From the NCBI RefSeq assembly GCF_017921895.1, contig NZ_JAFIDN010000006.1, positions 1-64,000 on the forward strand: DNA of 64,000 nt, written 5' to 3'. Origin of the DNA: Natronogracilivirga saccharolytica (GTDB taxonomy: Bacteria; Bacteroidota; Rhodothermia; Balneolales; Natronogracilivirgulaceae). The notes under the pieces are model-generated. The model was not told where the DNA came from. It saw nothing but the letters and a program-made list of their open reading frames with translations, and did no database searches. Shown here piece by piece: positions 157 to 49,279 of the stretch. Within the stretch, counting starts at the first letter, position 1. The number at the start of each line of letters is the position of its first letter. A program made the position numbers and the translations under genes.

Positions 157-1906
157 GTTGTGGTTTGATTCAAAGATGGGATGACCGATATTGCCCCCGA
201 AATTCAGAAACTTAATCAAGAAGTTGTGGTTTGATTCAAAGATGGGATGACCGATATTCTTTTCAATGGCATTATCAATTATTGCTTCGTTGTGGTTTGA
301 TTCAAAGATGGGATGACCGATATTGCTTTGCAGTTGCGCTCCAGTGAACCTACGGTTGTGGTTTGATTCAAAGATGGGATGACCGATATTCTACAATTTA
401 AAACGCTGCAATCAGCGGTAGTTGTGGTTTGATTCAAAGATGGGATGACCGATATTACATGCTGATATCGCCATTCTCAACGCGGAGTTGTGGTTTGATT
501 CAAAGATGGGATGACCGATATTACGGGGGGGGAGGATGAAATTAGGAGCCGAGTTGTGGTTTGATTCAAAGATGGGATGACCGATATTAAAGGACAAACT
601 AAGATTACACTTAATGGCGTTGTGGTTTGATTCAAAGATGGGATGACCGATATTTCACCAAACAAGTGGGGTCGTTACTGTATCGTTGTGGTTTGATTCA
701 AAGATGGGATGACCGATATTGTCAACGGTTAGCCCATCGCCGGACTCCAAGTTGTGGTTTGATTCAAAGATGGGATGACCGATATTAGTACATGTGGTAC
801 GTCTTCATTTTCTTCTGTTGTGGTTTGATTCAAAGATGGGATGACCGATATTTTTGTTGTTTTCCTCTCTGATTCGTTTGTGTTGTGGTTTGATTCAAAG
901 ATGGGATGACCGATATTCTTTCTGCCTTCTTCTTTAACTCCCTGTCAGTTGTGGTTTGATTCAAAGATGGGATGACCGATATTTTACCCCTGTTCCCGAC
1001 GGGTCTTCAAGCAGTTGTGGTTTGATTCAAAGATGGGATGACCGATATTTGTGATTTTATATTGGTGGTTGTGCCCGCTGTTGTGGTTTGATTCAAAGAT
1101 GGGATGACCGATATTATAGTCATGTAGCTCGTCAATGTCCCGCAAGTTGTGGTTTGATTCAAAGATGGGATGACCGATATTAACTTCTGCTTACTCAATC
1201 AAAAAGAAGATGTTGTGGTTTGATTCAAAGATGGGATGACCGATATTGCCGCCAGTCAGTCACCCATAGCCAAAGAGTTGTGGTTTGATTCAAAGATGGG
1301 ATGACCGATATTTTGGAAGGTATGGTATGAAGGCACCCCGGAGTTGTGGTTTGATTCAAAGATGGGATGACCGATATTTTTTATCCATCTTTCTGTAAAG
1401 GTTGCCGCGTTGTGGTTTGATTCAAAGATGGGATGACCGATATTTTTTATCCATCTTTCTGTAAAGGTTGCCGCGTTGTGGTTTGATTCAAAGATGGGAT
1501 GACCGATATTACACTTGCTTCGCTGTTGGCACTACAGGCAGTTGTGGTTTGATTCAAAGATGGGATGACCGATATTAAATTAGACCTTAGCGAACCAGAT
1601 GTAGCCGTTGTGGTTTGATTCAAAGATGGGATGACCGATATTTTCTTTTTATCGTACAAATCCCAAAATTCAGTTGTGGTTTGATTCAAAGATGGGATGA
1701 CCGATATTCGAAGGCTTTCCAATAAGTTTCCCTACTTTGTTGTGGTTTGATTCAAAGATGGGATGACCGATATTCCGTTTTTCATCATTCCACAGGACAC
1801 CATAGTTGTGGTTTGATTCAAAGATGGGATGACCGATATTTTTGTGTGTTGTCTGGCGCTATCTCAGCATGTTGTGGTTTGATTCAAAGATGGGATGACC
1901 GATATT
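157..1906 (+). CRISPR. Type II-C CRISPR array, 27 repeats, 26 spacers
   Basis: There are 27 copies of a 36-bp repeat that begins GTTGTGGTTTGATTC and ends GATGACCGATATT. They lie at a regular 66-bp period, so spacers are 30 bp, with two of 29 bp (853-881 and 1248-1276). Repeat starts run 157, 223, 289 and so on to 1871. I saw no degenerate copy, including the two terminal ones. The spacers at 1379-1408 and 1445-1474 are identical. The repeat is complementary to the anti-repeat at 6803-6827, so transcription is on the plus strand, towards cas2. The repeat starts with GTTG, as is usual in type II systems. Absence of csn2 and cas4, and the order cas9-cas1-cas2, make it subtype II-C. Confidence 0.98.
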
Positions 1907-1954
1907 AGTTGGTCTTGTAACCTTCTGATAGTCAGTCATATACTTGGATATCGG

Positions 1955-3318: not shown

Positions 3319-6300
3319 CTAATAAACCTTCAAAAGACCTGATGGTGTTATTCTGACTTTAACAGGATTCAGTTCCTGCCATTTTTTTAAACTTTGTATT
3401 CGACACTCTTGATCAGGAAAATTCAATGTAGATGCCAAATGATGACGGAATACATAATAACCTTCCGAGACCTTTTGCACACGGTATAAATGCGCCCCAA
3501 TTACATCGGTATCGAAACGCGAAACATCAGGGCTCTCTTCCGGCAATCCAATTACAAACATGTCGTTGATCTGCAACGTGGTTACAAATTCTTCCCCGTC
3601 ATCCGGAAGCTTAACTACCGGCTCTCCCTGGGTTTTGCGTTCTACAGCTGTCCAGAAGGTGACCGTGTCTTCTTTTAAGTTTCCTTTATTGTCTCGATAG
3701 ATCAATACGTGATGATTATTGCGGGGATTGACAAATTGATTGATATCCCGCAGCTGTTCAGCCCCACCCAGATTTTCCCGCAGCCGAACTTTTTTAACCG
3801 GAACCGGATCTCCATTTTTATTCGGCAAGTGAATCATCGGAATTTTACGCCCCTCTTCGTCCGCTCTGAAGAAAGTTTCGTTTGGAACATTTTTGCCTTT
3901 TTCGAATCCGCCCATCTTCTCAATACGCCTGTGAATTATTCCCCTTACAACCGGATCCACAATTTTCTCAACCTGTTTTTTTGTAGTGATACTTTCTAAT
4001 GGCTTGCGTACATGATAGGCATGAGCACCTCCATTTGTTTTTCGCTTGCCAAACACCGTCTCCTTGTGCAACTGACCTCGCGCAGCAATGCCGGTATTGA
4101 AATAGGTTTTTCCGTTTTTTGTAGTTTTATGGGTACGCCTGGTTAACACCGTATTGGTTTTTCGATGCGAAATTAAAATGCGGTTCACGTGATAGTCCAC
4201 CTGCTGGCGGAAATCTTCCCATGGCAAAGGGAACTCTTTGAGGTCGTATGAGCGGTGATACCTGTTCCAGCGGCTGAGCTCTTGCAGATAACCGACATTT
4301 GTGCAAGCCATAACCAGCGCATCAACAGCATGATGGCGGTGATCTTCTCTCGACTTTTCATCGTCAAGACTGAGTATGCTGTTCAACCCCCACTTACTTC
4401 TCAGATTTGATGTCATTTGACCCGGAGCTACTACAATATCCCGGCAAATTTTCGATAAATAGCTTTTCGCCTCCCGGCTGATGTATCGCGTATCATTAAG
4501 TTGCCGGCTTTTGAAATCACTGTCGTGTTTTTGCTTGATAAATTGCTTGAACTTCAGATATGCCTTGGGATAATTAGGCTTGTTTTTAAAACAACTCAAT
4601 GCTTGTGCCTTGATTTGTTCCCATTTTTCTTTACCCTGCTCGTTGTGATAAAACTCGTATGGCGTCCGGTCGCCCTTGGCCCGGTTTTCATCAGCAAAGC
4701 AAAGAGTTTTATTCATGAAACTGTCGTTCAGTGATTTACTCCAGGGATGGATGTGCTCTATCTGAACGTCACCTGAAAATAGTTGATTAAACTCAATGGA
4801 TCGGCCGGTGAACGGACATGTTTTGTTACATTCTTCCCACAGTTTGAATTTTAATATATTACTATGTGAAATGTCCTGGCCGGCATTGATCAACTCCTTT
4901 TTGACCCGGTCGTTCTCCCGTTCCAGCCTTTTCTGTTCCCGCCGAATGTCATTTCTTTTCGACTTGGAAATCTTCAGATCCCGGGCCAGCTCAATCTTGA
5001 TTTGATCGAAAGACCCGAAACGGTCAATGAGTTCGTTTACTACCTTTCGTAATTCAAAAAGCGCAGCTATGACAACAGGGTTTTTTATGCTTTGGATTTC
5101 AATATCTGCATCACGGCCTACAGGCAGCTTTTCCAATAATTCCTGAACTCTAATGTTCGTACTGTGGTGGTACAGCTTTTTTAGCTGCTTATCCGTCATC
5201 CCGAATTCGTCGGACAGAAATTTTCGCAATGTATTTATATAACCGCCTTTGCTATTCTGAGGCATAATATCCCAGATGTTGTCGGAAATTAGCGTCTTGC
5301 TTTCCGGATCGAGACGCTCCCATTCCGCACCAAATGCATTTTTAATACCACCAAGTGTAACGGCCGTGTCGTATGTAAAACCCTGCTTTAAAAAAGGAAG
5401 TATATTCAAGATGGCTTTCCTGCTTAAATGCGAATACTGATCATTTCCATTGCCAAGCCGGAATTTGCAAAAGTCTGCCGCCTGCTCTTCCGAAAGTCCC
5501 CACTGATCTTCTCCCCGCTTTTTCAATTTTTCTTTGTCATCGTAGAAGTAAAGGTCATGCCATACAGCCTCTTGTTCATCAAGTGTAAAGTCATCCCAGC
5601 GATTACCGAAGATTTTTTTTGATGACAGTTTTGATATGGTCAAACTGCCTGCAATTTGGTCGTCATTTTTGTAATTGAACTGAAACTCACTTCCTTCCTT
5701 GTTGATCGCTTTTCTAAGCACACTGAATTTGACCTTGGCCTTCTTCTTTAATTGTTCAATTAGTTTTTCACGGTCATCAATATTCAGTTTCTTACCATTG
5801 CACTCTACGGTATTTACCCACTGATACATCCTGAAAAGTTCAAACACAATGGAACTTCGAAGGCATTTGGGCTTGCTCGGCTCAAATGTACATTTGCCAA
5901 CCAGGTGTTTTTGAGAACGGAGAGGTCGCTGATGAAATAAAACACCGTCTTCTTTGTACCCGTCCTGTGTTCGTCCACCAATAGCCGCTTTCAGCTCATC
6001 AGTTAGTTCTTTATGATATGTGGCCTGGTTGGTCCAGATAGATTCAAATTCGTCGATATACATTTGACGGGTTGTATACCGATTCCTGATCCTGTCTTCC
6101 GGCTCTTTATACGACTCCCCATCTTCCGGATACAATTTATGGAGAAACTGTCCAAGTGTTTGATCTTTAATTTGGTCCCTTGTTTCCAGAATACCTTTCT
6201 TCCCCTCTTTCGGCTTTCCTTCATATATCGCACCATCTTCATCACCCGCACTACGACTGTTACTCTGATAACCCCTTCTCTGAATCAGATGATAAAAAAT

Positions 6301-6696
6301 TCGTCCGAGTTCATGAAGTGAGACTTTTTGATCCAGGGCTCTATTTCTCAGTTCATACGGATTTAATGCCAGCCAATCCCGAACCTCATCCCTGGCAAAT
6401 AAGCGATCGGTATTCCAGGTCTTAATCTCCTCTTTTTCAAAGGGGCACATATTATGTGAAGCCAGGATTTTTAAAAGGTAATTTTTCCGCACTCTGCGTC
6501 GAAAAAACTGACGCCTGCTGCTTCGTGCATCTCTCCTGGTGGCGTTTTTTGAAATTTCACCTTCGCCGTCTCCGAGATTTTCCACTCCTTCCGGGAATAT
6601 TCGCGTCCCCATTCCAAAAATAGTTTCATCTTCATCGTTAACTACTGCCCACCCGATGGAACTTGTTCCCAGATCAAGACCTAATATTCTACTCAT
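3319..6696 (-). CDS. cas9: CRISPR-associated endonuclease Cas9, subtype II-C
   Basis: 1125 aa, in the compact II-C range. RNA-guided DNA endonuclease using crRNA and tracrRNA. RuvC-I is ILGLDLGTSSIGWAV with Asp8. The Arg-rich bridge helix lies at about 51-75 (TRRDARSSRRQFFRRRVRK). RuvC-II is IKIELARDLK with Glu569. The HNH domain has QIEHIHPWSKS with His648, and Asn671 in ENRAKGDRTP. RuvC-III is DHRHHAVDALV with His789 and Asp792. All catalytic positions are therefore intact; the acidic residue before the HNH His is Glu rather than the more usual Asp. A GGAG ribosome-binding site sits seven bases upstream of the ATG. First gene of cas9-cas1-cas2; the tracrRNA gene is divergent and immediately upstream. 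The coding sequence looks more AT-rich than the rest of the window, compatible with horizontal gain. The PAM cannot be read from this window. Confidence 0.98.
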   Translation of the reverse strand: MSRILGLDLGTSSIGWAVVNDEDETIFGMGTRIFPEGVENLGDGEGEISKNATRRDARSSRRQFFRRRVRKNYLLKILASHNMCPFEKEEIKTWNTDRLFARDEVRDWLALNPYELRNRALDQKVSLHELGRIFYHLIQRRGYQSNSRSAGDEDGAIYEGKPKEGKKGILETRDQIKDQTLGQFLHKLYPEDGESYKEPEDRIRNRYTTRQMYIDEFESIWTNQATYHKELTDELKAAIGGRTQDGYKEDGVLFHQRPLRSQKHLVGKCTFEPSKPKCLRSSIVFELFRMYQWVNTVECNGKKLNIDDREKLIEQLKKKAKVKFSVLRKAINKEGSEFQFNYKNDDQIAGSLTISKLSSKKIFGNRWDDFTLDEQEAVWHDLYFYDDKEKLKKRGEDQWGLSEEQAADFCKFRLGNGNDQYSHLSRKAILNILPFLKQGFTYDTAVTLGGIKNAFGAEWERLDPESKTLISDNIWDIMPQNSKGGYINTLRKFLSDEFGMTDKQLKKLYHHSTNIRVQELLEKLPVGRDADIEIQSIKNPVVIAALFELRKVVNELIDRFGSFDQIKIELARDLKISKSKRNDIRREQKRLERENDRVKKELINAGQDISHSNILKFKLWEECNKTCPFTGRSIEFNQLFSGDVQIEHIHPWSKSLNDSFMNKTLCFADENRAKGDRTPYEFYHNEQGKEKWEQIKAQALSCFKNKPNYPKAYLKFKQFIKQKHDSDFKSRQLNDTRYISREAKSYLSKICRDIVVAPGQMTSNLRSKWGLNSILSLDDEKSREDHRHHAVDALVMACTNVGYLQELSRWNRYHRSYDLKEFPLPWEDFRQQVDYHVNRILISHRKTNTVLTRRTHKTTKNGKTYFNTGIAARGQLHKETVFGKRKTNGGAHAYHVRKPLESITTKKQVEKIVDPVVRGIIHRRIEKMGGFEKGKNVPNETFFRADEEGRKIPMIHLPNKNGDPVPVKKVRLRENLGGAEQLRDINQFVNPRNNHHVLIYRDNKGNLKEDTVTFWTAVERKTQGEPVVKLPDDGEEFVTTLQINDMFVIGLPEESPDVSRFDTDVIGAHLYRVQKVSEGYYVFRHHLASTLNFPDQECRIQSLKKWQELNPVKVRITPSGLLKVY

Positions 6697-21000: not shown

Positions 21001-21450
21001 TCAGCTGCCGGACCCGTCTTCCGTACCCGAGGCCAGCAATGTCTCCAGTCCCTTCCAGGCCAGATCGACACATCCGATGCGCATCGGATAGGCCTTGATT
21101 TCCCCGAGTGAGGTCAGTTCCGCTTCCAAAGAGTCCGGTGCCTGACGCTCGTCCCCGCCAAGCCAGGCCCTGATTTGTGCTGTTTTGCGGACAGCATCCG
21201 GCAGTTGCATCCCCGATAATTCACTGCAGGCAATCGATGCCGATGCGAGGCAGTAGAAACACCCCTCCCCTTCGAATTTCAACTCGTCAACCCTGTCATT
21301 TTTCAGTCTGGCAGAAAAGGACAGCCGGTCGCCGCACCTCCGGTTCACCACTTCATGCTGCAGATCAGGTGTGTCGACCGTACCGCGGCACCGCTGGTTG
21401 CGGAAATGATCAATAAGCAGGGACGTTTTTTCCGTGTCTTTCCGTGACAT
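21001..21450 (-). CDS. sufU: SufU-like iron-sulfur cluster assembly protein
   Basis: 149 aa. Ligands align with Bacillus SufU: Cys39 and Asp41 in NRRCGDRLSF, Cys64 in GEGCFYCLASAS, Cys127 in RIGCVDLAWKGL. The family accepts persulfide sulfur from SufS, as a zinc-dependent sulfur-transfer partner rather than a true scaffold. The CFYC segment adds one extra Cys. No sufS, sufB or sufD is adjacent. It begins only 15 bp after the lspA stop on the same strand, so it may be the last gene of the ileS-dksA-like-lspA run. Confidence 0.85.
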   Translation of the reverse strand: MSRKDTEKTSLLIDHFRNQRCRGTVDTPDLQHEVVNRRCGDRLSFSARLKNDRVDELKFEGEGCFYCLASASIACSELSGMQLPDAVRKTAQIRAWLGGDERQAPDSLEAELTSLGEIKAYPMRIGCVDLAWKGLETLLASGTEDGSGS

Positions 21451-21465
21451 TGCAGATGCGGAGTA

Positions 21466-22161
21466 TTAGCGATCCGGTGAGTTCTGCCGCTTTGGAGCTT
21501 CTGCTCCCTTTTGTGAGTCCCCGGCTTGTGGGCCGATCTCATCAGGAGAACCTGCCTGCTCATCCCCCCATCGTTCATCCTCTTTTTGCGGATTGCCCGG
21601 ACTACCGCTTACAGGATTCTCTTTCGGGGAAGCCCCGGTCTGGTATTCGGGGATCAGTTTTTTATAGAAAACAATCAGCGTCACGATGGCGACAGTTATG
21701 GCGCTGTCCGCCACATTGAAGATGTAAGGAAAAACGGCAAAATTGCCGATTTCAAGCTTGAAATGTATGAAATCCACCACGTGTCCGTCCAGAACGCCGC
21801 CGTAGCCTCCCACGCGGGCCATGAAAATGCGGTCGGCGATATTCCCGAGCGCGCCGCCGATGATCATCCCCATGCAGACCATATAGCCGGTTCCGGCCGG
21901 CTTCATGGTTTTCCAGACGTAGACCAGAATCACAATGGTCGCCGCAATGGCGATGAGGCTGATGACCCAGGTATCGGCCCAGTCAATGCCCATTGCCATG
22001 CCGGGATTCTTGGTGAAATTGAACGCAAGCCACCCCTCGATCAGTGTGTACTGATGCAATTCGGGGCTGGTGCGGATCCAATACTTGGTAAGCTGATCCA
22101 GTATCAGGACAATCAGTGCTGCACCGCCGAATACCGAGAGCTTCTTCCCGACGGGGTTCAA
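21466..22161 (-). CDS. lspA: Lipoprotein signal peptidase (signal peptidase II) with C-terminal extension
   Basis: 231 aa; a usual LspA is about 160-170. Four membrane helices and the two catalytic aspartates are present: Asp110 in GNIADRIF and Asp152 in FNVADSAI. NFTKNPGMAMG corresponds to the conserved N-terminal motif. It cleaves prolipoprotein signal peptides in the inner membrane; several lipoproteins with lipoboxes are in this window. Residues about 175-231 form a hydrophilic Gly/Pro/Asp/Glu-rich tail absent from most homologues. Five bases separate it from the DksA-like gene upstream, so they share a transcript. Confidence 0.93.
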   Translation of the reverse strand: MNPVGKKLSVFGGAALIVLILDQLTKYWIRTSPELHQYTLIEGWLAFNFTKNPGMAMGIDWADTWVISLIAIAATIVILVYVWKTMKPAGTGYMVCMGMIIGGALGNIADRIFMARVGGYGGVLDGHVVDFIHFKLEIGNFAVFPYIFNVADSAITVAIVTLIVFYKKLIPEYQTGASPKENPVSGSPGNPQKEDERWGDEQAGSPDEIGPQAGDSQKGAEAPKRQNSPDR

Positions 22162-22166
22162 AACAG

Positions 22167-22568
22167 TTATCGCCTTTTAAGTTTGGCTTCGATGCTGATC
22201 TGGGTATGGGGTACCGCTTCGAGGCGCCCTTTCGAAATTTTCTTGCCGGTCACCTTGCAGACACCATAGGTCTTGTTGTTGATGCGCTCGATGGCATCAT
22301 CAAGATATTTGATGAACTTCCTGGTGCGGTTGTACAGCATGTAGGTCTTCTCTCTCTCCTGGGCATCCGTGCCGGCATCAGCCATATGAAACGAATAAGC
22401 CGACTCATCCGACGAATTCTCGGTGCTCTCCTTGAGTGCATCCATCAGAATGTTCAGATCCTGCTCGGCTTCCTTGCGTTTTTTCAAAATGATACCGCGA
22501 AAGTACTCCAGTTCCTCATCGCTGTATGGGGATACGCGCTCCCCGCTTTCGTTGGTTTCCTTGCTCAT
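22167..22568 (-). CDS. TraR/DksA family regulator, zinc-ligand-poor form
   Basis: 133 aa. An N-terminal coiled coil (about 15-95) and a C-terminal globular segment of the DksA type: YGVCKVTGKKISKGRLEAVP. Only one Cys is present, where a canonical C4 zinc finger has four, a pattern known for Bacteroidota homologues. DksA-like proteins bind the RNA polymerase secondary channel and tune initiation. It lies between ileS (12 bp) and lspA (5 bp) on the same strand, hence probably one operon. Whether it responds to ppGpp is unknown. Confidence 0.85.
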   Translation of the reverse strand: MSKETNESGERVSPYSDEELEYFRGIILKKRKEAEQDLNILMDALKESTENSSDESAYSFHMADAGTDAQEREKTYMLYNRTRKFIKYLDDAIERINNKTYGVCKVTGKKISKGRLEAVPHTQISIEAKLKRR

Positions 22569-22580
22569 AGCTGCAGAGGA

Positions 22581-25500
22581 TTAATAGTTGGTGTTACGTT
22601 GAATAGCAATGGTACAGTTTCTGCCGTCTATTTCCCACTGCTTGGTGAAATCAGATTCACCGGCAGGTCCATAACTGATCTCTTCTGCCAGTGTCTCGCT
22701 TTTTACATACTCTTTCATGGAATCAACCGAGGCCTGAACCTCATCATCACCATCCAGATATACTTCTATGCGATCGGTAAGTTCAAAATTGGCCTCCTTC
22801 CGCATGTTCTGGACACGGTTTACAATTTCCCTGGCAAGCCCTTCCCGCATGAGTTCTTCATCCAGCTCGGTGTCAAGCGCTACCGTAACTCCTGCTTCCG
22901 TCTCGACAGACCAGCCTTCCAGTCCGTGCCGGGTAATCGTGATGTCTTCCTTTTTCAGGGTTATGGGATCGCCATCTTCAAGGTCTACTACCCACTCACC
23001 CTTTTCTTCAAATTCCGATATGTCTTTTGTTGTCAGTTTCTGTACGGCTGCCGCCACCGGCTTCATCCGCTTTCCAAGCTTTTTGCCGAGAACCGGGAAG
23101 TTGGGCTTGGCACTTTTCTGTACGATGCCGGAATCGTCATTTACATATTCAATCTCCTTAACGTTCACTTCATCTAATATAATACCTTTTACGGAATCAA
23201 TTGCCAAACGCTCTTCGGTATTATTGGCCGGAACGATCACGCGGCGCAGCGGCTGCCGGACATTGATCCGGATCTGGTTGCGAATCCGCAATACGATCGA
23301 AGTGATGGTGCGGGCCATGCTCATCCGGTACTCCAGGTCCCGGTCAATCGCAGTCTCCTCAACCGCCGGATAGAACGTCAGATGGACCGAATCCTCCTCA
23401 AACTCCGTGACGGTGTTGAGGTTGCGGTAGAGCCATTCTGTGATGAACGGTGCAACCGGACTGGCGATTTTTGCCAGATTTACCAGGCATTCGTACAGCG
23501 TCTGATAGGCGGCCGTCTTGTCCAGGCTCTTGCCTTCCCGCCAGAAACGGCGCCGGCTACGGCGGACATACCAGTTGCTCAGATCGTCAGCGAACCGCTC
23601 GATTTCACGCACGGCGCGGGTCGGTTCGTAGTCATCCATGAACGTATCCACCTTCTTGATGGTGGTAAACTGCCGGGAAATGATCCAGCGGTCGATCTCG
23701 CTGCGCTCGGAATAGGGAATCGGCACGCCGGAATAGGTCCACTTGTCGATGTTGGCATACATGGCCATGAAGGAGTAGGTGCTGACCAGCGTGTTGAAAA
23801 ACTTGCGCTGGGTCTCCTGAAGCCCCTCCTCACTGAACTTCAGATTGTCCCACGGCGATGAATTGCTCATCATGTACCAGCGGGTCGTGTCGGCACCGTA
23901 CTTGCTGATCGTGTCAAACGGGTCGACCGTATTCCCCTTCGACTTGCTCATTTTTTCGCCTTTGGCATCCAGTACAAGTCCGTTGGAAACCACGTTGTGA
24001 TAAGCCGGCGAATCAAAAAGGATCGTTGCTATGGCGTGCAGGGTGTAAAACCATCCGCGGGTCTGATCCACGCCTTCGGCGATGAAGTCGGCCGGGAAAT
24101 TCTCCTTGAACTCCGACTTGTTTTCAAAGGGATAGTGACGCTGCGCAAATGGCATCGCACCGGAATCAAACCACACATCCAGCAGGTCCGGAATACGCCG
24201 CATGGTACCGCCGTCTTTGGCCTTCCAGGTAATTTCATCGATATACGGGCGGTGAAGATCCAGTTCGGTATCCTCATCAATGCCGCCTTTTTCGCGAAGT
24301 TCCCCGATACTTCCGATAACTTCGACCTCTTCGGGGTTGTTTTCGTTTACCCAGATCGGCAGCGGGGTACCCCAGTATCGCTGGCGCGAAATCGCCCAGT
24401 CGACATTGTTCTCGAGCCAGACTCCGAAACGCCCGGTTCCGGTCCCCGGAGGTTTCCAGTTGATTTTCTTGTTAAGTTCCACCATCCGGTCGCGGATTTC
24501 CGTGGTTTTTATGAACCAGGATTCGACGGGATAGGACATCAGCGGCGTACCCTTGCGCCAGTCGTGCGGATAGTTGTGCACGTAGGTCTCGTGGCGGAAC
24601 ATCCGGCCCCGCTCCTTTATGTCCCGGGCAATGCCCTTGTCGGCATCCTTGAACCACTGGCCTGCAAAATCATCGATAATATCTTCAAAGCGCCCGTCCC
24701 GGCTGACCGGATTGAACATGGGAATGCCTTCTTTCTTGCACACTTCATAGTCATCGGCACCGAATGCCGGGGCGATGTGCACAATTCCGGTACCCTCTTC
24801 CAGTGTGACATAATCAGCAGGAACAATCCGCCAGGCCTGATTTCTTGAGATCTTCTTCAGCGCGTAACCGAACATCGGCTCGTAGGTGCGTCCCACCAGA
24901 TCGGCGCCCTTAAGTTCCTCAACCACTTCGTAGCCGTCTCCAAGCACCTTGCCGGCCAGCTCTTTGGCAATATAGTAATATGCCTCCCGGCCGTCATGCT
25001 CGACCCGGGCTTTTACATAGTCAAATTCCGGATGAACGGCCAGCACCATGTTGGATATGAGTGTCCATGGCGTGGTTGTCCAGGCCATTACATGGGTGTT
25101 CTCCTCGCCGTCGACTGGAAATGTGACGTAGATGGACGGGTCCTGAACCTCTTCGTAGCCGAGACTCACTTCGTGGGAGCTGAGCACGGTTCCGCTGCCG
25201 GGGGAATACCACTGGATTTTATAGCCTTTGTAGATCAGGCCCTTGTCAAACATCTTCCTGAGCGCCCACCATACCGATTCGATGTAGTCATTGTCGAATG
25301 TGACATAGGGATTGTCCAGATCCACCCAGTAGCCCATGCGGTTGGTCAGGTGGTCCCAGTCGCCCTTGTAGCGGAGGACACTTTCTCGGCATTTGGCATT
25401 GTATTCGGCGATGCCGTACTCCTCAACCTGCTCCCGGCCCTGAAGCTTGAGCTCCTTCTCAACTTCAATTTCAACCGGCAGACCGTGGGTGTCCCAGCCG

Positions 25501-25754
25501 CCTTTGCGGTCGACCTTGCACCCTTTCAATGTCTTGTACCGGCAGAAAAGATCCTTGACCGTCCGGGACAGCACATGATGGATGCCCGGCTTGCCGTTGG
25601 CCGTAGGCGGACCCTCATAAAAGGTGAAGGGGATGCCATCCTTGCGGGTGGATACGCTGCGATTGAATACATCATTCGCCTTCCACCACTCCAGAACTTC
25701 GAGTTCTGCTTTGGGATATTGTAACTGTTTTACTTCCTTGAATTTCTTACTCAT
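22581..25754 (-). CDS. ileS: Isoleucyl-tRNA synthetase, type 2, with swapped HIGH motif
   Basis: 1057 aa, the IleS2 length, and there is no C-terminal Cys4 zinc site. The Rossmann catalytic domain, CP1 editing domain (containing the TTPWTLISN segment) and anticodon-binding domain are in the expected order. The KMSKS loop is intact (EKMSKSKGN, near 598). The class I HIGH motif reads GIHH at residues 57-60 in GKPGIHHVLSR: the first and third positions are exchanged. This variant has been described in some IleS2 enzymes and linked to extreme mupirocin resistance. First gene of the ileS, DksA-like, lspA run. Two short palindromes lie just upstream of its ATG. Confidence 0.96.
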   Translation of the reverse strand: MSKKFKEVKQLQYPKAELEVLEWWKANDVFNRSVSTRKDGIPFTFYEGPPTANGKPGIHHVLSRTVKDLFCRYKTLKGCKVDRKGGWDTHGLPVEIEVEKELKLQGREQVEEYGIAEYNAKCRESVLRYKGDWDHLTNRMGYWVDLDNPYVTFDNDYIESVWWALRKMFDKGLIYKGYKIQWYSPGSGTVLSSHEVSLGYEEVQDPSIYVTFPVDGEENTHVMAWTTTPWTLISNMVLAVHPEFDYVKARVEHDGREAYYYIAKELAGKVLGDGYEVVEELKGADLVGRTYEPMFGYALKKISRNQAWRIVPADYVTLEEGTGIVHIAPAFGADDYEVCKKEGIPMFNPVSRDGRFEDIIDDFAGQWFKDADKGIARDIKERGRMFRHETYVHNYPHDWRKGTPLMSYPVESWFIKTTEIRDRMVELNKKINWKPPGTGTGRFGVWLENNVDWAISRQRYWGTPLPIWVNENNPEEVEVIGSIGELREKGGIDEDTELDLHRPYIDEITWKAKDGGTMRRIPDLLDVWFDSGAMPFAQRHYPFENKSEFKENFPADFIAEGVDQTRGWFYTLHAIATILFDSPAYHNVVSNGLVLDAKGEKMSKSKGNTVDPFDTISKYGADTTRWYMMSNSSPWDNLKFSEEGLQETQRKFFNTLVSTYSFMAMYANIDKWTYSGVPIPYSERSEIDRWIISRQFTTIKKVDTFMDDYEPTRAVREIERFADDLSNWYVRRSRRRFWREGKSLDKTAAYQTLYECLVNLAKIASPVAPFITEWLYRNLNTVTEFEEDSVHLTFYPAVEETAIDRDLEYRMSMARTITSIVLRIRNQIRINVRQPLRRVIVPANNTEERLAIDSVKGIILDEVNVKEIEYVNDDSGIVQKSAKPNFPVLGKKLGKRMKPVAAAVQKLTTKDISEFEEKGEWVVDLEDGDPITLKKEDITITRHGLEGWSVETEAGVTVALDTELDEELMREGLAREIVNRVQNMRKEANFELTDRIEVYLDGDDEVQASVDSMKEYVKSETLAEEISYGPAGESDFTKQWEIDGRNCTIAIQRNTNY

Positions 25755-42105: not shown

Positions 42106-45100
42106 TCACATATCGGCAAGTGAGACGGCTTGGCCGCCCTCAGGATCGGTAAACAGGAGCCAGACACGACCCGGATCCATTTTTTCCTGCCGGATTTCTT
42201 CAAAGGCCCGCTTGTAGACAGCGATTTGGCGATCATAACCGTAATCTCGGTTGTTATCTGTATACGGACCGGTTTTGAAGTCCACGATATGCTCCCTGCC
42301 GTCGGAGTCCCGGATGATCATATCAATGTAGCCCCGGTACGCTGCCGGAGAGACTTCATCCACATGAGAGGCTTCATTCACCTGAGAGGCTTCATCTTCC
42401 TGAGAAGTGTCATCTGCCGGTGAGGCTTCATCTGCCAGAGAAGTGTCATCTGCCGGTGAGGCTGCATCAGCACGGGTGCCGGCTGACTCCGGGCCCGTAC
42501 GGTCTTCATCCCGGAGAAGTACCTCGAAGGCCACTTCATAACGGCGGGGAGCCTGGTCTCCGAACATGCTGCGGATACAGTGAGACGCATTGCGGCAATG
42601 CCTTATCAGCTCATCCCGGTGTTCTTCTATGACCTTCTCCGGATGCTCATACTGCATTCCGGAAAGCTCCCTGATCCAGAACTGAACAGCTTGATCCGTC
42701 TCTTTATCCGCAGGAGTTGTATCCGTGTCCCCGTGTTCAAAAAATCCGAACTCCAGGGCACGATGTATCAGCGTACCCTTGTCGTTGGGGGCAAGGCCGG
42801 TTCCTGCATCCCCGGACTCGTCTTCCTTTTCTCTTTTGTAATCTGATCCTGTATCTGGATCAGCATCCTCCACCTGCGGCCGGTCTTTGCCGGAAATTCC
42901 CGATGCAGACTGAAGATCTGCCGCAACCCCTTGATCCGCTCTGCGGAAGACCGCGGCCGAGCGGTCTGCTGCGGTGAATCTTGCCTTATCCGGATCCGCA
43001 TCTTCCTCATCATCCGGATCAGGATCCGGAACATAACCTGACAACTCTTCGAGATCATCGACCGTAAAATCCTGGATGACAATATCATCCGTCAGTGAAA
43101 CCCCTGCCTGGTCTTCATCGTCGGAGAACATCGGTTTCAGCATTTCAGCAAACGATCCCGTTTTGTTGCTTCCGCTGTAATCGGTCATGCTGACCAGCAA
43201 GTGCGTTTCGGCGCGGGTTACGGCGACATAGAACAGGCGTTTTGCCTCAGCGAGCCGGCGTTTCTTTCGTTCAGCTTTGAGGAAATGGTGCAGAAAGGAG
43301 GTGTTGCTGTCATCAGTGCCTTCCTTGTCGGGCGGCTTGTAGGACACGGCCGGCCAGGCAGCGCTGTCGTCATCATCATCGGCTATAAACAGCTGCATCC
43401 CGCCGTCATGATCTCCGGCAAGCATATCGGGCACGGCCACCATCGGGAACTGAAGGCCTTTCGACCCGTGGACAGTCATCAGCTGAATAGGTGCCGGCTC
43501 GGGCTGTTCGGCTTCGGTATCACCCGCCTCCTCGGTTATACGGTTCGACAAAAATCCGGTGACTTCAAAAAGGGTTCCCCGTCCGGTGCGCTCCAGATTG
43601 CGGATGACATCCAGCAGCTTGATCAGGTTTTCACGTACCTGAGCATCGTCTGCGTGAGCACCGAGGTAGGGCCCGTCCGTAAAAAACGCCCGTTCCACGA
43701 TCTCCGAAACACGCTTCACCGGCACCATTTCCCGTAAATCTTCGAGCAGCCGGATACCTGCGGCAAGCGCCTTCCGGTCCGCATCCGAAAGCAGTTCATC
43801 CCAGTGCTTTGCATTTGAAAGCGCGTTCCAGAAATGGGGGTAATCGTGCCCGGGCTTGTCCATCGCCACCCTCGCGGCAAGCAAACCGGAGTCCGAAAAT
43901 GAAATCATCGGCGAGCGAAGCAGTCCGACCAGAGCAACATCGTCAAAGGCATCCAGCAAAAACGAAAGCAGAAGCCATGCATCCTTGATTTCGCGGCGCT
44001 GATAATAGCGTGTGCCTTTGGCCACGGAATAATCGAGTCCGGCCTCCGCGAGTGCCTGCTCGAGGGCGTGCATGTGCTTGCGGCGCCGGTAAAGAACGCC
44101 CACAGCCCGTTCACCCCTGATCATTTTCTGTCTGACAGCCTCGTATTGCGAATGCCGGCCGTCGCGCATTTCGCGCAGGAACCGGGCGATCCGGCGGGAT
44201 TCGAGCTGGACATAATCGGAAGCGAGCGCTTCGGCCTCCACACTGACGGAAGTCCGGGAGGAAGTGCTTTTCCCCTCGTTTATCTGCTTGATCTCTTTCT
44301 TGAGTTGTGCGGTATCGGCACGTAATAAGCGCACCTCGCCGGGGGCATCGGCGTTTTTTGAAATTTCAGATGATGGCCTTTTCAGAGACTGATGGTGGGC
44401 CTCATACGATGCGGGTGTGGTTCCGGCGCCAAACACCTGGCGAAAAACGCGATTGGAGAAATCCACAATGGTTTTGTTGGACCGGAATGAGTAGGGCAGC
44501 GGCAGGATGCGGAGCGGAAGCGCACTTTTGCGATCTGCCCTCTTCTTCAGGTCGGCATGAACCCGGCGCATCATCGACACATCCCCTCCCCGGAAGGAAT
44601 AGATGGCCTGCTTGATGTCACCGACGATCATGACTTCCTTGTCGTTACCATCATCTGCAAAGCCGAGTTTTCTGATAATCTCCCACTGGCGCCGGTCGGT
44701 GTCCTGAAATTCATCAACGAGGATCTGATCAAAGCGGTTTCGCATCTGAGCGGTGACGCCGGGATTTTCCGTCAGCAGCTTGTGGGTCAGCCAGATCATG
44801 TCGTCATAGTTGAAATAGCCGGCCTCAAACCGCTGATAGCGCATGAGTGTCTTCCAGCGCAACGCGAGCTCCGACAGGTCACGCATATTCCAGTAGGCCT
44901 CATGATCCGGGTTGAACTCCGCCTCATCTGAATAGGCCGCAAGCTGCTCCGCAACTTCGTCCGCAGCGAGATACGCCTCGGCCTGCCGGACCGCTTCATA
45001 AAGCGGGAAAAATGCTTTTGCAATCTCGTTCAGCTCAGCATGAATTTCCCGGTCCACATTTTTTTTCACCAGCTCATTCAGACTGATGCCATTACTTTGG

Positions 45101-45915
45101 GTTTTCAGCTCAAGCAGGTCCTCAAATGTTTCCGGCGGACCGGTTTCGGGTTTAAACCAGTCCGGATGCTCTGCCAGACCGGAAAGCAGCTGATTCCCCT
45201 GCGGATCGATTTCCTTCCGCCAAATATCTGTCAGCTCCCGAAGTTTGCCGAGATACTGTTCGCAGTCAAGCGCTGCCATCTGGTGCAGGGCCTGATCATC
45301 AAGTCCACCCAGCTTGTGCATGAACGACTCGAAATCGGAGACCGAAATGCGCGAAAGCTGCCGCTGCAATCCCTTGTGATCTTTGTAGATACGGTAGAAC
45401 CGCTTGCGCCACTCCATCATCCACAGCACTTCATCGTAATCACCCAGCAGCTCGAACGCACCATCGATATTTCGTTGGCTCCGGAGTCCTTCCGGGTCAA
45501 GTGAATCCGGACGATCAGATACCGATATTTCGGTCAGTTCATCCGGAAAATAGTGCAGAATGCGATTACAGAAGGAATGAAACGTCGAAATATAGTTGCG
45601 CGAAAACCGGCGCCGGGTATCCAAAAGATGCTCTGAGGCACCGTTTTTACCGATACTTTTGTTGATGGCATCGTAGATTCGTGACCGCATTTCAGCGGCG
45701 GCAAAGTCGGTGAATGTCAGCGTAAGCATGCGTTCCAGCGGGACATTCCTGTCTGCCAGCTGATGGATGACGCGTTCTGTGAGATTATGCGTTTTCCCGG
45801 TTCCGGCACCAGCCTCCAGAATCATGAACCCCTGATGACGGCAGATCTCATCTGTGATATCATCGGGTGACTGCTGCTGAGGGGGCATTATGTGATTTTT
45901 TGAATCAAAGCTCAT
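42106..45915 (-). CDS. addA: AddA-like helicase-nuclease subunit
   Basis: 1269 aa, typical AddA size. UvrD-type superfamily 1 helicase: Walker A EAGAGTGKTHNL at 34-45, Walker B ILVDEFQDTD, motif IV-VI segments including TVHGSKGLQFP and the LFYVAVTRAET block. The C-terminal PD-(D/E)XK nuclease carries GYIDMII and HIVDFKTGPY near 1195-1216 (Asp, Asp, Lys). With AddB it resects double-strand breaks for recombination and can degrade linear foreign DNA. Two acidic low-complexity inserts precede the nuclease: a DPD/E-rich linker near 945-1025, and a run of about seven six-residue units of the form (E/D)(A/T)S(P/Q)(A/V)(D/N), encoded by an 18-bp tandem repeat. It starts 11 bp inside the end of addB. 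Confidence 0.9.
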   Translation of the reverse strand: MSFDSKNHIMPPQQQSPDDITDEICRHQGFMILEAGAGTGKTHNLTERVIHQLADRNVPLERMLTLTFTDFAAAEMRSRIYDAINKSIGKNGASEHLLDTRRRFSRNYISTFHSFCNRILHYFPDELTEISVSDRPDSLDPEGLRSQRNIDGAFELLGDYDEVLWMMEWRKRFYRIYKDHKGLQRQLSRISVSDFESFMHKLGGLDDQALHQMAALDCEQYLGKLRELTDIWRKEIDPQGNQLLSGLAEHPDWFKPETGPPETFEDLLELKTQSNGISLNELVKKNVDREIHAELNEIAKAFFPLYEAVRQAEAYLAADEVAEQLAAYSDEAEFNPDHEAYWNMRDLSELALRWKTLMRYQRFEAGYFNYDDMIWLTHKLLTENPGVTAQMRNRFDQILVDEFQDTDRRQWEIIRKLGFADDGNDKEVMIVGDIKQAIYSFRGGDVSMMRRVHADLKKRADRKSALPLRILPLPYSFRSNKTIVDFSNRVFRQVFGAGTTPASYEAHHQSLKRPSSEISKNADAPGEVRLLRADTAQLKKEIKQINEGKSTSSRTSVSVEAEALASDYVQLESRRIARFLREMRDGRHSQYEAVRQKMIRGERAVGVLYRRRKHMHALEQALAEAGLDYSVAKGTRYYQRREIKDAWLLLSFLLDAFDDVALVGLLRSPMISFSDSGLLAARVAMDKPGHDYPHFWNALSNAKHWDELLSDADRKALAAGIRLLEDLREMVPVKRVSEIVERAFFTDGPYLGAHADDAQVRENLIKLLDVIRNLERTGRGTLFEVTGFLSNRITEEAGDTEAEQPEPAPIQLMTVHGSKGLQFPMVAVPDMLAGDHDGGMQLFIADDDDDSAAWPAVSYKPPDKEGTDDSNTSFLHHFLKAERKKRRLAEAKRLFYVAVTRAETHLLVSMTDYSGSNKTGSFAEMLKPMFSDDEDQAGVSLTDDIVIQDFTVDDLEELSGYVPDPDPDDEEDADPDKARFTAADRSAAVFRRADQGVAADLQSASGISGKDRPQVEDADPDTGSDYKREKEDESGDAGTGLAPNDKGTLIHRALEFGFFEHGDTDTTPADKETDQAVQFWIRELSGMQYEHPEKVIEEHRDELIRHCRNASHCIRSMFGDQAPRRYEVAFEVLLRDEDRTGPESAGTRADAASPADDTSLADEASPADDTSQEDEASQVNEASHVDEVSPAAYRGYIDMIIRDSDGREHIVDFKTGPYTDNNRDYGYDRQIAVYKRAFEEIRQEKMDPGRVWLLFTDPEGGQAVSLADM
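42352..42472 (-). repeat. 18-bp tandem repeat (minisatellite) inside addA
   Basis: About seven imperfect copies of an 18-bp unit, on the plus strand of the form TTCATC-TGCCGGTGAGGC, lie in frame and encode the six-residue repeat of AddA just before its nuclease motif. Copy number could vary without shifting the frame. Confidence 0.8.
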
Positions 45916-48900
45916 TATCGTCTTCCCAAAAAGGTTCTGCGATGTACCAGGTGTCCAGCTTTGCCGGCGGCTCGCCGTCAGCCATCCGGCTCTTTTTTTT
46001 CAGCCGCTCCAGCTCTGTGTTCCTCCTTTGTTTCTGAATCCGCTCATCAAAACGGGTAATATGCCGGAAGTCGGACCAGGGCAGATCGTTGTCAAGGCTG
46101 ATGTGGAACCTGCCTTTGCTGATGGCATCCGCAATCCAGCTGATGCGGTGTTGTTCGATGGCCTTCATGAATTCCGCCATCTCTTCAGCTGGTTTGAATT
46201 TTTCCTTATGCCTCTTTCTTTTGGTCCGGGCTTTATTTTTCCAGGCTGCCTCAGAGATCATTTCAGTCGATCCGAGTGAAAACTCCGGCCCCATCTCTTT
46301 GAATTTCCCGCTGATCGGCAGCTGGTAATAGCCGGCAAGAAACCGGGGGATGCCGCAGCTTTGCAGATACATGCCATAAACCGGCAGCTGATAGCTCTGC
46401 CCGTTCAGTATGTGCGTGTATTTTTTCACACCGGACTTGCCTGATTTGTAATCGAAGATCAGTGCCTGTTTTCCGTCGGATGTCAGATCGATGCGGTCAA
46501 TTTTCCCGTTAAATCGCAGGTCGATCCCGTTCATTTTCCTGGAAAACGTCCACTTTTGCTCCATCTCAAATCCAAACTCCGGATAGAAAACAGCCGGACG
46601 CGCATCGTCGATATCCTCCATCCATATTTCCCTGCCAAGAGCCTCAAGATCGATAAACCATCCGGTCACCCGTTCAAGATTTCTCTCGAGCATGGCTGGG
46701 AATGGAGTGTCAGGATTGCCGAGCTGATGCCGGAACAGCTCCACCAGCCGGCGCCGGATGCTGTTCATGCGGGTGCGGGCTTTACCGGGATTGTCAGCCG
46801 GCCAGACAGGCGGACCCTCCTGCTCCGTCTCGGAGTAGAATTCCTCCAGAATCTGATGCAGCAGACTGCCTTTGATGCTGGACTCGGCGTCGTCTTTGTA
46901 TTCACTCAACGGCTCCAGCCGCAGCACATACCGGAAAAAATATTCCTGAGGCGACGATGCAAAGGTATCCAGACGGCTGATGCTCATGGGCAGATGGCCG
47001 TCCTGCAGCTGGAGCGGCCACCACCGCTCAACAATCCGGGCATCCACGATGCCGTCATACTCTCCCATGTCTGATGTGTCACGCCGCGCATGTTCGACAT
47101 CGGCAGCCTGCCGGAAAGGTTCGGCCAGTCGCTCAATTTTCCTGCTGTCTCCGGCAATGCGATTGCCGGCAGCGGCCACTTTCCCGATGTCATGACCGGA
47201 AAATAGCAGACGGGATGATCTGACCGGCCAGTCAGGCTTATCCGGTGACATCGCTTCCGGTGAAGTTGATCCCGGTGAGCCCGTATCCGGCGAAGTGCCT
47301 GAATCGCCGGCATCACGGGCGATTTGACGGCCGGCAATCTCCTCCTCAAGATCCAGCCACAACGGAGACGGCATCACCGGCTTCTGATCAACCAGTACCG
47401 GACGGCTGAGATAGCGCGGGCTGCGGGCAGCAAGCAACCGGCGAAGCTGTATCCTCGCCTGCTCAAACGATTCCGTCCCTTTCCGGCCGGTTAGCTGCTC
47501 AAGGGCTTTCTCGTACCGGAAATGCAGAAAATCGGGCCGGTCGCCCCTGGGGAAGCCGTCCTCATGAAGCCCGAGCACAAAAACGGTCTTGTCATGCACC
47601 TCCGGAAGCTGATGAATTTCCGTCAGCAGTACGCCGCCCGGACGCTCTTCCGGACGCTCACGTGTTTCCTTAAGCCGCAATTCAAGCAGCCTGAAAAAAT
47701 CCGACCGGGGAAGTTTCCGTACAAGTCCCAGGCGGGCTTCCGAATCCCGCAGTTTTCCGAGAATGATATCGAGCAGCTGCTTGGCCTGGTTGGCCTCCCG
47801 GCTCATCAGGTCCTTCTGCAGCCCGAGAATGTCCTCCGTCCATCCGACCCAGTCCCGCAGCAGCATCTTTCCTTCGGTGTTGTAGGATGTTCTCAGCTTT
47901 TTCAGATTCCGGATGACATCTCCGTAAAATTTCCGGTCACGGCGCAATCCGTCGCGGCGTTTTTGCTCCTTTTCTTCATCATCCTCGTACCGGATGTATT
48001 CAAGCAGACTGTCGAAAACCCGCGATATGCCATCTTCGGTTTCATCGAGCGTCCGGAAATTGTACTCTCTGCAAAACTGTGAAAAATGACGGATATTCGG
48101 GGTTTTCTGCTCGTCATGATCCTCAAGGTTGGGCAATATCAGCCGGTTGTCAGCAAAAACCCGGGCGACATCATCGATCTGGAATCCGTTTTCCTCCAGT
48201 TTCAGATAGGTAAGCAGCCTGCGGATGAAAGGATGGCTGATCAGTGACGGCCCCCGGCTGGTGTAGAGCGGCACACCGAATCGCTCGCGCATTGCCGGAA
48301 CCATGGGCTCGTACAGCGACAGGTCTCCGGCGAGAATGACGAAATCCCGGTACTCCGGCTGTGCTCCGGCGGTACCATTACCCTCCGAAATAAGCATCAG
48401 AATCTGGCGCATGGCCTGTTCAAGCTCTTCCCTGGGATGATGGAACGAGCTCATGTACCGAAACCCGCTGGTACCGTGAAAGCCGGCCCCCGCCTGGTCT
48501 GCATTACCCGCATAGATCCGGACAAGCTCCGTGCGATCCCCGACTGACCGGGCAATCCGCTCCAGCGCATGATGCTGCACCGGATCGATCACATCAGCCA
48601 GATAAATAACCAGTTTGGAATACCGGATAATGTGCGGACGGCAGTGTTCCATTTTCCCCGGCAGGAACTCGCGGTCAAGCCAGTTTTTTTCCGACATCTC
48701 CTGCTCATAGGCCTGAAGCAGATCGGCCAGAACCTTTCGCTGAGCGGATCCGGACAGAGTGTTACCCGGTTCCCTGCCTTGCTGTTTACCTCCTTGCTGC
48801 TTTATTCCCCGCACACCGGCATCAGGATCGATTTGCTCAAGCTGCTCACGCAACGCGCCCGGCCGCTGATTTTCCCGGTACAGATCCCCGATAATGTTGG

Positions 48901-49279
48901 ATATGGCCGTGACCGATTTCATGCCGGAAAACCGCCGGAAGTCACGGTCGGGATGGGTGGACAGCCACTGCTCCAGCCACATGGTGCGCTCTTCGGCTGC
49001 TGGAACAAGCGCCGGCTGGTCCGCTTCATCAATACTGTGGCGCGCCACCTCATCGAGAAACGATGCGAGGGTCCGGATGTCAGGGGCGAAATCACCGGTG
49101 TGCTGCTGCCACTTTTTCCGCACCTCCCGCTCCATCAGCAGGTTGCTCACGAGAATCAGGGTGCCGGATCCGCCGGCCTCTTGCCGCAGATGATGCCACG
49201 ACTCGCTTGCTCCATCACAAAATATTTCCCGCATCGTCAGTACCCGGATTTCTGATTGTTCGAAGGTGAAGGTTACCAA
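45905..49279 (-). CDS. addB: AddB-like nuclease subunit with inactive helicase fold
   Basis: 1124 aa. The N-terminal half has the UvrD-like layout without a Walker A motif (TLILVSNLLMEREVRKKW opening), typical for AddB. The C-terminal PD-(D/E)XK nuclease shows GKIDRIDLT and LIFDYKSGKSG near 920-950 (Asp, Asp, Lys), followed by GQSYQLPVYGMYLQ. I do not see the four-Cys iron-sulfur set of Bacillus AddB. A Ser-Pro-Asp-rich linker near residues 662-680 is coded by short repeats. ATG at 49234 (MREIFCDG) is an alternative start. It overlaps addA by 11 bp and is divergent from polX, 144 bp away. Confidence 0.85.
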   Translation of the reverse strand: MVTFTFEQSEIRVLTMREIFCDGASESWHHLRQEAGGSGTLILVSNLLMEREVRKKWQQHTGDFAPDIRTLASFLDEVARHSIDEADQPALVPAAEERTMWLEQWLSTHPDRDFRRFSGMKSVTAISNIIGDLYRENQRPGALREQLEQIDPDAGVRGIKQQGGKQQGREPGNTLSGSAQRKVLADLLQAYEQEMSEKNWLDREFLPGKMEHCRPHIIRYSKLVIYLADVIDPVQHHALERIARSVGDRTELVRIYAGNADQAGAGFHGTSGFRYMSSFHHPREELEQAMRQILMLISEGNGTAGAQPEYRDFVILAGDLSLYEPMVPAMRERFGVPLYTSRGPSLISHPFIRRLLTYLKLEENGFQIDDVARVFADNRLILPNLEDHDEQKTPNIRHFSQFCREYNFRTLDETEDGISRVFDSLLEYIRYEDDEEKEQKRRDGLRRDRKFYGDVIRNLKKLRTSYNTEGKMLLRDWVGWTEDILGLQKDLMSREANQAKQLLDIILGKLRDSEARLGLVRKLPRSDFFRLLELRLKETRERPEERPGGVLLTEIHQLPEVHDKTVFVLGLHEDGFPRGDRPDFLHFRYEKALEQLTGRKGTESFEQARIQLRRLLAARSPRYLSRPVLVDQKPVMPSPLWLDLEEEIAGRQIARDAGDSGTSPDTGSPGSTSPEAMSPDKPDWPVRSSRLLFSGHDIGKVAAAGNRIAGDSRKIERLAEPFRQAADVEHARRDTSDMGEYDGIVDARIVERWWPLQLQDGHLPMSISRLDTFASSPQEYFFRYVLRLEPLSEYKDDAESSIKGSLLHQILEEFYSETEQEGPPVWPADNPGKARTRMNSIRRRLVELFRHQLGNPDTPFPAMLERNLERVTGWFIDLEALGREIWMEDIDDARPAVFYPEFGFEMEQKWTFSRKMNGIDLRFNGKIDRIDLTSDGKQALIFDYKSGKSGVKKYTHILNGQSYQLPVYGMYLQSCGIPRFLAGYYQLPISGKFKEMGPEFSLGSTEMISEAAWKNKARTKRKRHKEKFKPAEEMAEFMKAIEQHRISWIADAISKGRFHISLDNDLPWSDFRHITRFDERIQKQRRNTELERLKKKSRMADGEPPAKLDTWYIAEPFWEDDNEL

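What the first reader, a model, noticed from the sequence alone, without database searches (positions are those of the whole stretch)
22581..25754. IleS carries GIHH in place of HIGH: predicted extreme mupirocin resistance
Residues 57-60 read GIHH in the otherwise normal class I catalytic site, with KMSKS intact. This is the HIGH motif with positions 1 and 3 exchanged. Published work on IleS2 enzymes with this GXHH form reports activity retained and very strong mupirocin resistance. Seen here in a likely Balneolota genome, which suggests either descent within IleS2 or defence against a mupirocin-like product.
Basis: partly seen in the sequence, partly recalled or inferred. Interest (0 to 1): 0.75.

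Follow-up and report, generated by a model that had tools for sequence, protein, structure and literature searches.

The report
Ordinary type-2 isoleucyl-tRNA synthetase, GIHH motif
The odd GIHH active-site motif is real, but it is the normal, inherited form of this essential enzyme in every relative checked across the whole phylum, and its link to very strong resistance to the antibiotic mupirocin was published in 2023, so this is an ordinary housekeeping gene.

Summary
The ORF 25754..22581 (-) encodes a 1057-aa isoleucyl-tRNA synthetase with GIHH at residues 57-60, in register with the HIGH motif of other IleRS, and an intact KMSKS. It is the only IleS in the genome. It is an IleRS2 (type 2): it groups with IleRS2 in trees, has the DUF5915 C-terminal domain, lacks the IleRS1 zinc finger, and aligns best in the PDB to IleRS2 (936 bits, against 361 for IleRS1). 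GXHH is not special to this genome. All 198 genomes sampled across the phylum carry G-[IVLM]-H-H, and so do most type-2 enzymes read from Actinomycetota, Chloroflexota and others. The gene sits in a compact housekeeping operon (ileS-dksA/traR-like-lspA) kept in 29 of 29 relatives of the order. I found no polyketide synthase. Brkic et al. 2023 (PMC10485003) described G/AXHH in 86 of 163 type-2 enzymes and measured mM mupirocin Ki values. Strong intrinsic resistance is therefore a fair prediction, though unmeasured. The motif is an ancient lineage character, not evidence of local defence against a mupirocin-like product. Verdict: already known, low interest.

The parts
22581..25754 (-). ileS: type-2 isoleucyl-tRNA synthetase (IleRS2), 1057 aa, the only IleS of the genome
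25575..25586 (-). codons 57-60, GIHH (GXHH form of the class I HIGH signature)
   Evidence: (pattern match 25575-25613)
22584..23186 (-). C-terminal DUF5915 region (PF19302, residues 857-1053), found in the IleRS2 proteins scanned and not in the IleRS1 controls
22167..22568 (-). DksA/TraR-type zinc-finger protein, about 12 bases downstream of ileS; syntenic in 29/29 relatives of the order
21466..22161 (-). lspA, signal peptidase II, next in the operon; syntenic in 29/29 relatives of the order
21001..21450 (-). NifU N-terminal domain (Fe-S scaffold) protein at the operon end; found next to ileS-lspA in only 1 of 29 relatives, whose flanks are short

Best explanation
This is the essential, single-copy housekeeping IleRS2 of a member of the Bacteroidota/Balneolota-type phylum. 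It carries the GXHH form of the signature motif because its lineage fixed that form long ago. Mechanism, by transfer from Brkic et al. 2023: in IleRS2 the tip of the helix that carries the motif is shifted, so a histidine at the third position does not displace the adenine of ATP and catalysis persists. The same bulky histidine clashes with mupirocin, raising Ki into the high-micromolar to millimolar range. The enzyme, and probably the cell, should therefore be intrinsically very insensitive to mupirocin. Shown here: the sequence, alignment, type-2 placement, phylum-wide fixation, synteny and single copy. Inferred: catalytic activity and resistance of this enzyme.
For: Motif and register. Only one IleS; the other hits checked in the genome are ValRS, LeuRS, MetRS and ArgRS. 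IleRS2 placement: tree with IleRS1 on the far side of a 100* branch, PDB IleRS2 936 bits against IleRS1 361 bits, DUF5915 present and zf-FPG_IleRS absent, with E. coli and Pseudomonas IleRS1 as opposite controls. GXHH in 198/198 phylum genomes. In genome contigs 66 of 77 readable relatives are GXHH. Most readable Actinomycetota IleRS2 are GXHH. Conserved operon in 29/29 relatives. Kinetics: DrIleRS2 ALHH Ki 6.6 mM, dropping 823-fold on restoring HVGH; GVHH raises Ki of TtIleRS2 and PmIleRS2 about 200-fold and 430-fold; IleRS1 with GXHH is inactive (PMC10485003). SgIleRS, same motif, Ki 10 mM (PMC4861432).
Against: No kinetic value exists for this enzyme or for a close relative in the material read. 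The GVHH mutant of TtIleRS2 reached only 35 uM, so the size of the effect depends on the scaffold. No structure of this enzyme was modelled.
Confidence: 0.95

Rival explanations
1. The motif is a recent adaptation of this organism to a mupirocin-like antibiotic, made by itself or by a neighbour.
For: GXHH does confer hyper-resistance in studied IleRS2 enzymes (PMC10485003).
Against: The motif is fixed in all 198 sampled genomes of the phylum and in all 29 fetched relatives of the order, so it long predates this organism. No modular PKS: one acyltransferase frame of 331 aa and ketoacyl-synthase frames of 392-414 aa. Housekeeping operon context.
Confidence: 0.02
2. The gene is a horizontally acquired resistance copy, like mupA.
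For: IleRS2 genes do move on plasmids in staphylococci.
Against: It is the only IleS in a 97% complete genome. It groups with its own order at 99*. The ileS-dksA/traR-like-lspA order is kept in 29/29 relatives. It scores far under the MupA and MupB cut-offs (881 and 868 against 1900 bits), and MupA itself has HTGH, not GXHH.
Confidence: 0.01
3. GXHH was fixed for a reason other than mupirocin (for example a different natural inhibitor, or drift allowed by the shifted helix tip), and resistance is a by-product.
For: It is fixed across phyla of very different habitats, and it costs little catalysis in DrIleRS2 (PMC10485003).
Against: No direct test. The published authors favour antibiotic selection. 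Compatible with the best explanation rather than opposed to it.
Confidence: 0.4

Closest known systems
G/AXHH IleRS2 enzymes (Brkic et al. 2023, PMC10485003; e.g. Streptomyces griseus and Deinococcus radiodurans IleRS2)
   Same: Type-2 IleRS with HIGH positions 1 and 3 exchanged, intact KMSKS, housekeeping role
   Different: No tested difference; this is one more natural GXHH IleRS2. No kinetics for this one.
Engineered GVHH P. megaterium IleRS2 (PDB 8c8w)
   Same: Best full-length PDB match; same motif form
   Different: Engineered from HVGH; the wild-type P. megaterium enzyme is canonical
T. thermophilus IleRS2 (PDB 1ile)
   Same: Type 2; same EGPPTANG lead-in; best PDB match for the first 120 residues
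   Different: HVGH motif; published as a reversion within its clade
MupA of staphylococcal plasmids
   Same: IleRS2-type architecture with DUF5915, 39% identity
   Different: Carries HTGH, is plasmid-borne and an extra copy
E. coli IleRS1
   Same: Same enzyme activity; its gene is also followed by lspA
   Different: 28% identity, HIGH, C-terminal zinc finger, no DUF5915

Membership tests
Isoleucyl-tRNA synthetase | Passes the curated ileS model (TIGR00392) | tested here: met
   984 bits against a cut-off of 621
IleRS2 (type 2) | Groups with IleRS2 and apart from IleRS1 in a tree | tested here: met
   100* branch between the types; motif columns masked in a second tree, same placement of the window enzyme
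IleRS2 (type 2) | Type-2 C-terminal domain (DUF5915), no IleRS1 zinc finger | tested here: met
   PF19302 at 221 bits, PF06827 absent; controls behave as expected
GXHH subset of IleRS2 | G/A-X-H-H in register with HXGH, KMSKS present | tested here: met
GXHH subset of IleRS2 | Mupirocin Ki far above that of HXGH IleRS2, with activity retained | not testable with these tools
   Needs ATP/PPi exchange on purified enzyme
MupA/MupB acquired resistance genes | Passes the MupA or MupB model and is an extra, mobile copy | tested here: not met
   881 and 868 bits against a cut-off of 1900; single copy in a conserved operon

The most novel reading that the evidence does not exclude
GXHH is universal, with no exception, across a whole phylum (198/198 sampled genomes), so the phylum as a whole would be intrinsically hyper-resistant to mupirocin at target level, and the motif would be an ancient shared character rather than a scattered adaptation. 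Whether this exact statement is spelled out in the published tree could not be checked, because its supplementary files were not open here.
Probability: 0.5. Interest if true: 0.2.

Novelty: already known. Interest (0 to 1): 0.08.

Why it matters
It matters little beyond annotation. It is a reminder that GIHH in IleS of this phylum is the normal state and should not be scored as an acquired or unusual resistance gene. If measured, it would add one more phylum to the set of kinetically tested hyper-resistant IleRS2 enzymes.

Tried and rejected
Sequencing error or misaligned motif: rejected, the same motif is in every relative. Second IleS elsewhere in the genome: rejected; the other TIGR00392 hits checked are valS, leuS, metG and argS. 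Mobile or recently acquired copy: rejected by synteny and tree. Self-protection of a mupirocin-type producer: no modular PKS found. Single against multiple origins of GXHH: not resolved (one change; two; AU p = 0.51 for one clade); the paper infers at least two gains. Rfam search of the window found nothing. Structure prediction was not run: a predicted model would not reliably resolve the 1-2 Angstrom helix-tip shift that matters. Two literature searches turned up no title or abstract reporting a direct mupirocin test of a GXHH IleRS from this phylum.

Full report
Observation. The ORF at 25754..22581 on the minus strand encodes 1057 residues. Residues 57-60 are GIHH, in FYEGPPTANGKPGIHHVLSRTVKD. 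In alignments the four residues sit exactly on HIGH of E. coli IleS, HTGH of staphylococcal MupA, HVGH of wild-type P. megaterium and T. thermophilus IleRS2, and GVHH of the engineered P. megaterium mutant 8c8w. KMSKS is intact.

Identity. The protein passes the curated ileS model at 984 bits. It is the only IleS in the 3.75 Mb, 97% complete genome; the other hits that I checked are ValRS, LeuRS, MetRS and ArgRS. It is a type-2 enzyme by three tests. In the tree the IleRS1 rows stand behind a fully supported branch, and the window enzyme lies with its own order (the same placement with the motif masked). It has the C-terminal DUF5915 domain and no IleRS1 zinc finger, the reverse of E. coli and Pseudomonas IleRS1. 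In the PDB it scores 936 bits to P. megaterium IleRS2 and 361 or less to IleRS1.

How unusual is GXHH? Not unusual at all. All 29 fetched relatives of the same order carry GIHH. A strict DNA pattern for GPPxxNGxPGxHH is found in 126 of 198 genomes drawn evenly from the phylum, including every sampled genome of the same order and class. The remaining 72 miss it because they read GPPTVNG; a looser pattern finds G-[IVLM]-H-H in all 72. Among 80 relatives with record titles from genome contigs, 77 could be read: 66 GXHH and 11 HIGH. Where the 11 HIGH enzymes carry a taxon label they are Bacillota, mostly Clostridia. Of the Actinomycetota enzymes that could be read, 18 are GXHH; five of the six others are IleRS1 and one is a type-2 HYGH. 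In the Pseudomonadota sample all but one of the readable enzymes are IleRS1 with HXGH.

Context. ileS is followed within about 12 bases by a DksA/TraR-type zinc-finger protein, then lspA, then a NifU-domain protein, all on the same strand. The ileS-dksA/traR-lspA order holds in 29 of 29 relatives of the order, and in many named Bacteroidota and Ignavibacteria the same two genes lie close downstream. This is a housekeeping operon inherited with the gene. There is no sign of a mobile element in this operon. The genome holds one acyltransferase frame of 331 aa and free-standing ketoacyl-synthase frames of 392-414 aa, as expected of ordinary fatty-acid synthesis, so no polyketide cluster of the mupirocin kind was found, within the limits of a draft assembly.

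Mechanism and literature. Brkic et al. 2023 (PMC10485003) found G/AXHH in 86 of 163 type-2 IleRS and never in IleRS1. They measured Ki 6.6 mM for the natural ALHH enzyme of D. radiodurans, an 823-fold fall on restoring HVGH, and about 200-fold and 430-fold rises on making GVHH in two HVGH enzymes. Their structures explain it: in IleRS2 the helix tip is displaced so that the histidine fits beside ATP, while it clashes with mupirocin. An earlier paper gives Ki 10 mM for S. griseus IleRS (PMC4861432). The window enzyme meets every sequence criterion of this class, so strong target-level resistance is a fair inference. It was not measured.

Verdict. The motif is real and its known consequence is correctly recalled, but the enzyme is the standard housekeeping IleRS2 of its phylum. 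It does not mark this organism as adapted to, or a producer of, a mupirocin-like compound.

Noticed in passing
window 157-1907 and 3319-6696: A repeat array with a 66-base unit (24 in-register copies) lies near a minus-strand 1125-aa ORF with RuvC_III and HNH_4 domains: a CRISPR array with a Cas9-type protein, probably a type II system.
   Followed up: partly
EGPP/DGPP position just before the motif (residue 47 in the window IleS): In 170 IleRS read here, all 120 GXHH enzymes have Glu before GPP and all 50 HXGH ones have Asp. P. megaterium and T. thermophilus IleRS2 have Glu with HVGH, so Glu may be a permissive partner of GXHH; shared ancestry confounds this.
   Followed up: partly
L112, L117 (Pseudomonadota MAGs); G201: Two MAGs labelled Pseudomonadota carry a GIHH IleRS2 on a long shared branch; in G201 it is the only IleS over the cut-off. 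This suggests replacement of IleRS1 by IleRS2 in that lineage.
   Followed up: partly
L044 (MAG labelled Oceanococcus): Its GVHH IleRS2 groups with the window's order at 98*, at 54% identity to the window enzyme, which suggests a mis-binned contig or a transfer.
   Followed up: no
G115:C1:44012-44050 and G115:C10:603-641: One phylum genome has two places with the IleRS2 GXHH signature, i.e. possibly two ileS copies.
   Followed up: no
window 42106-45915 and 45905-49279: Adjacent UvrD-type helicase and PD-(D/E)XK nuclease genes overlap by a few bases on the minus strand, an AddAB-like pair.
   Followed up: no
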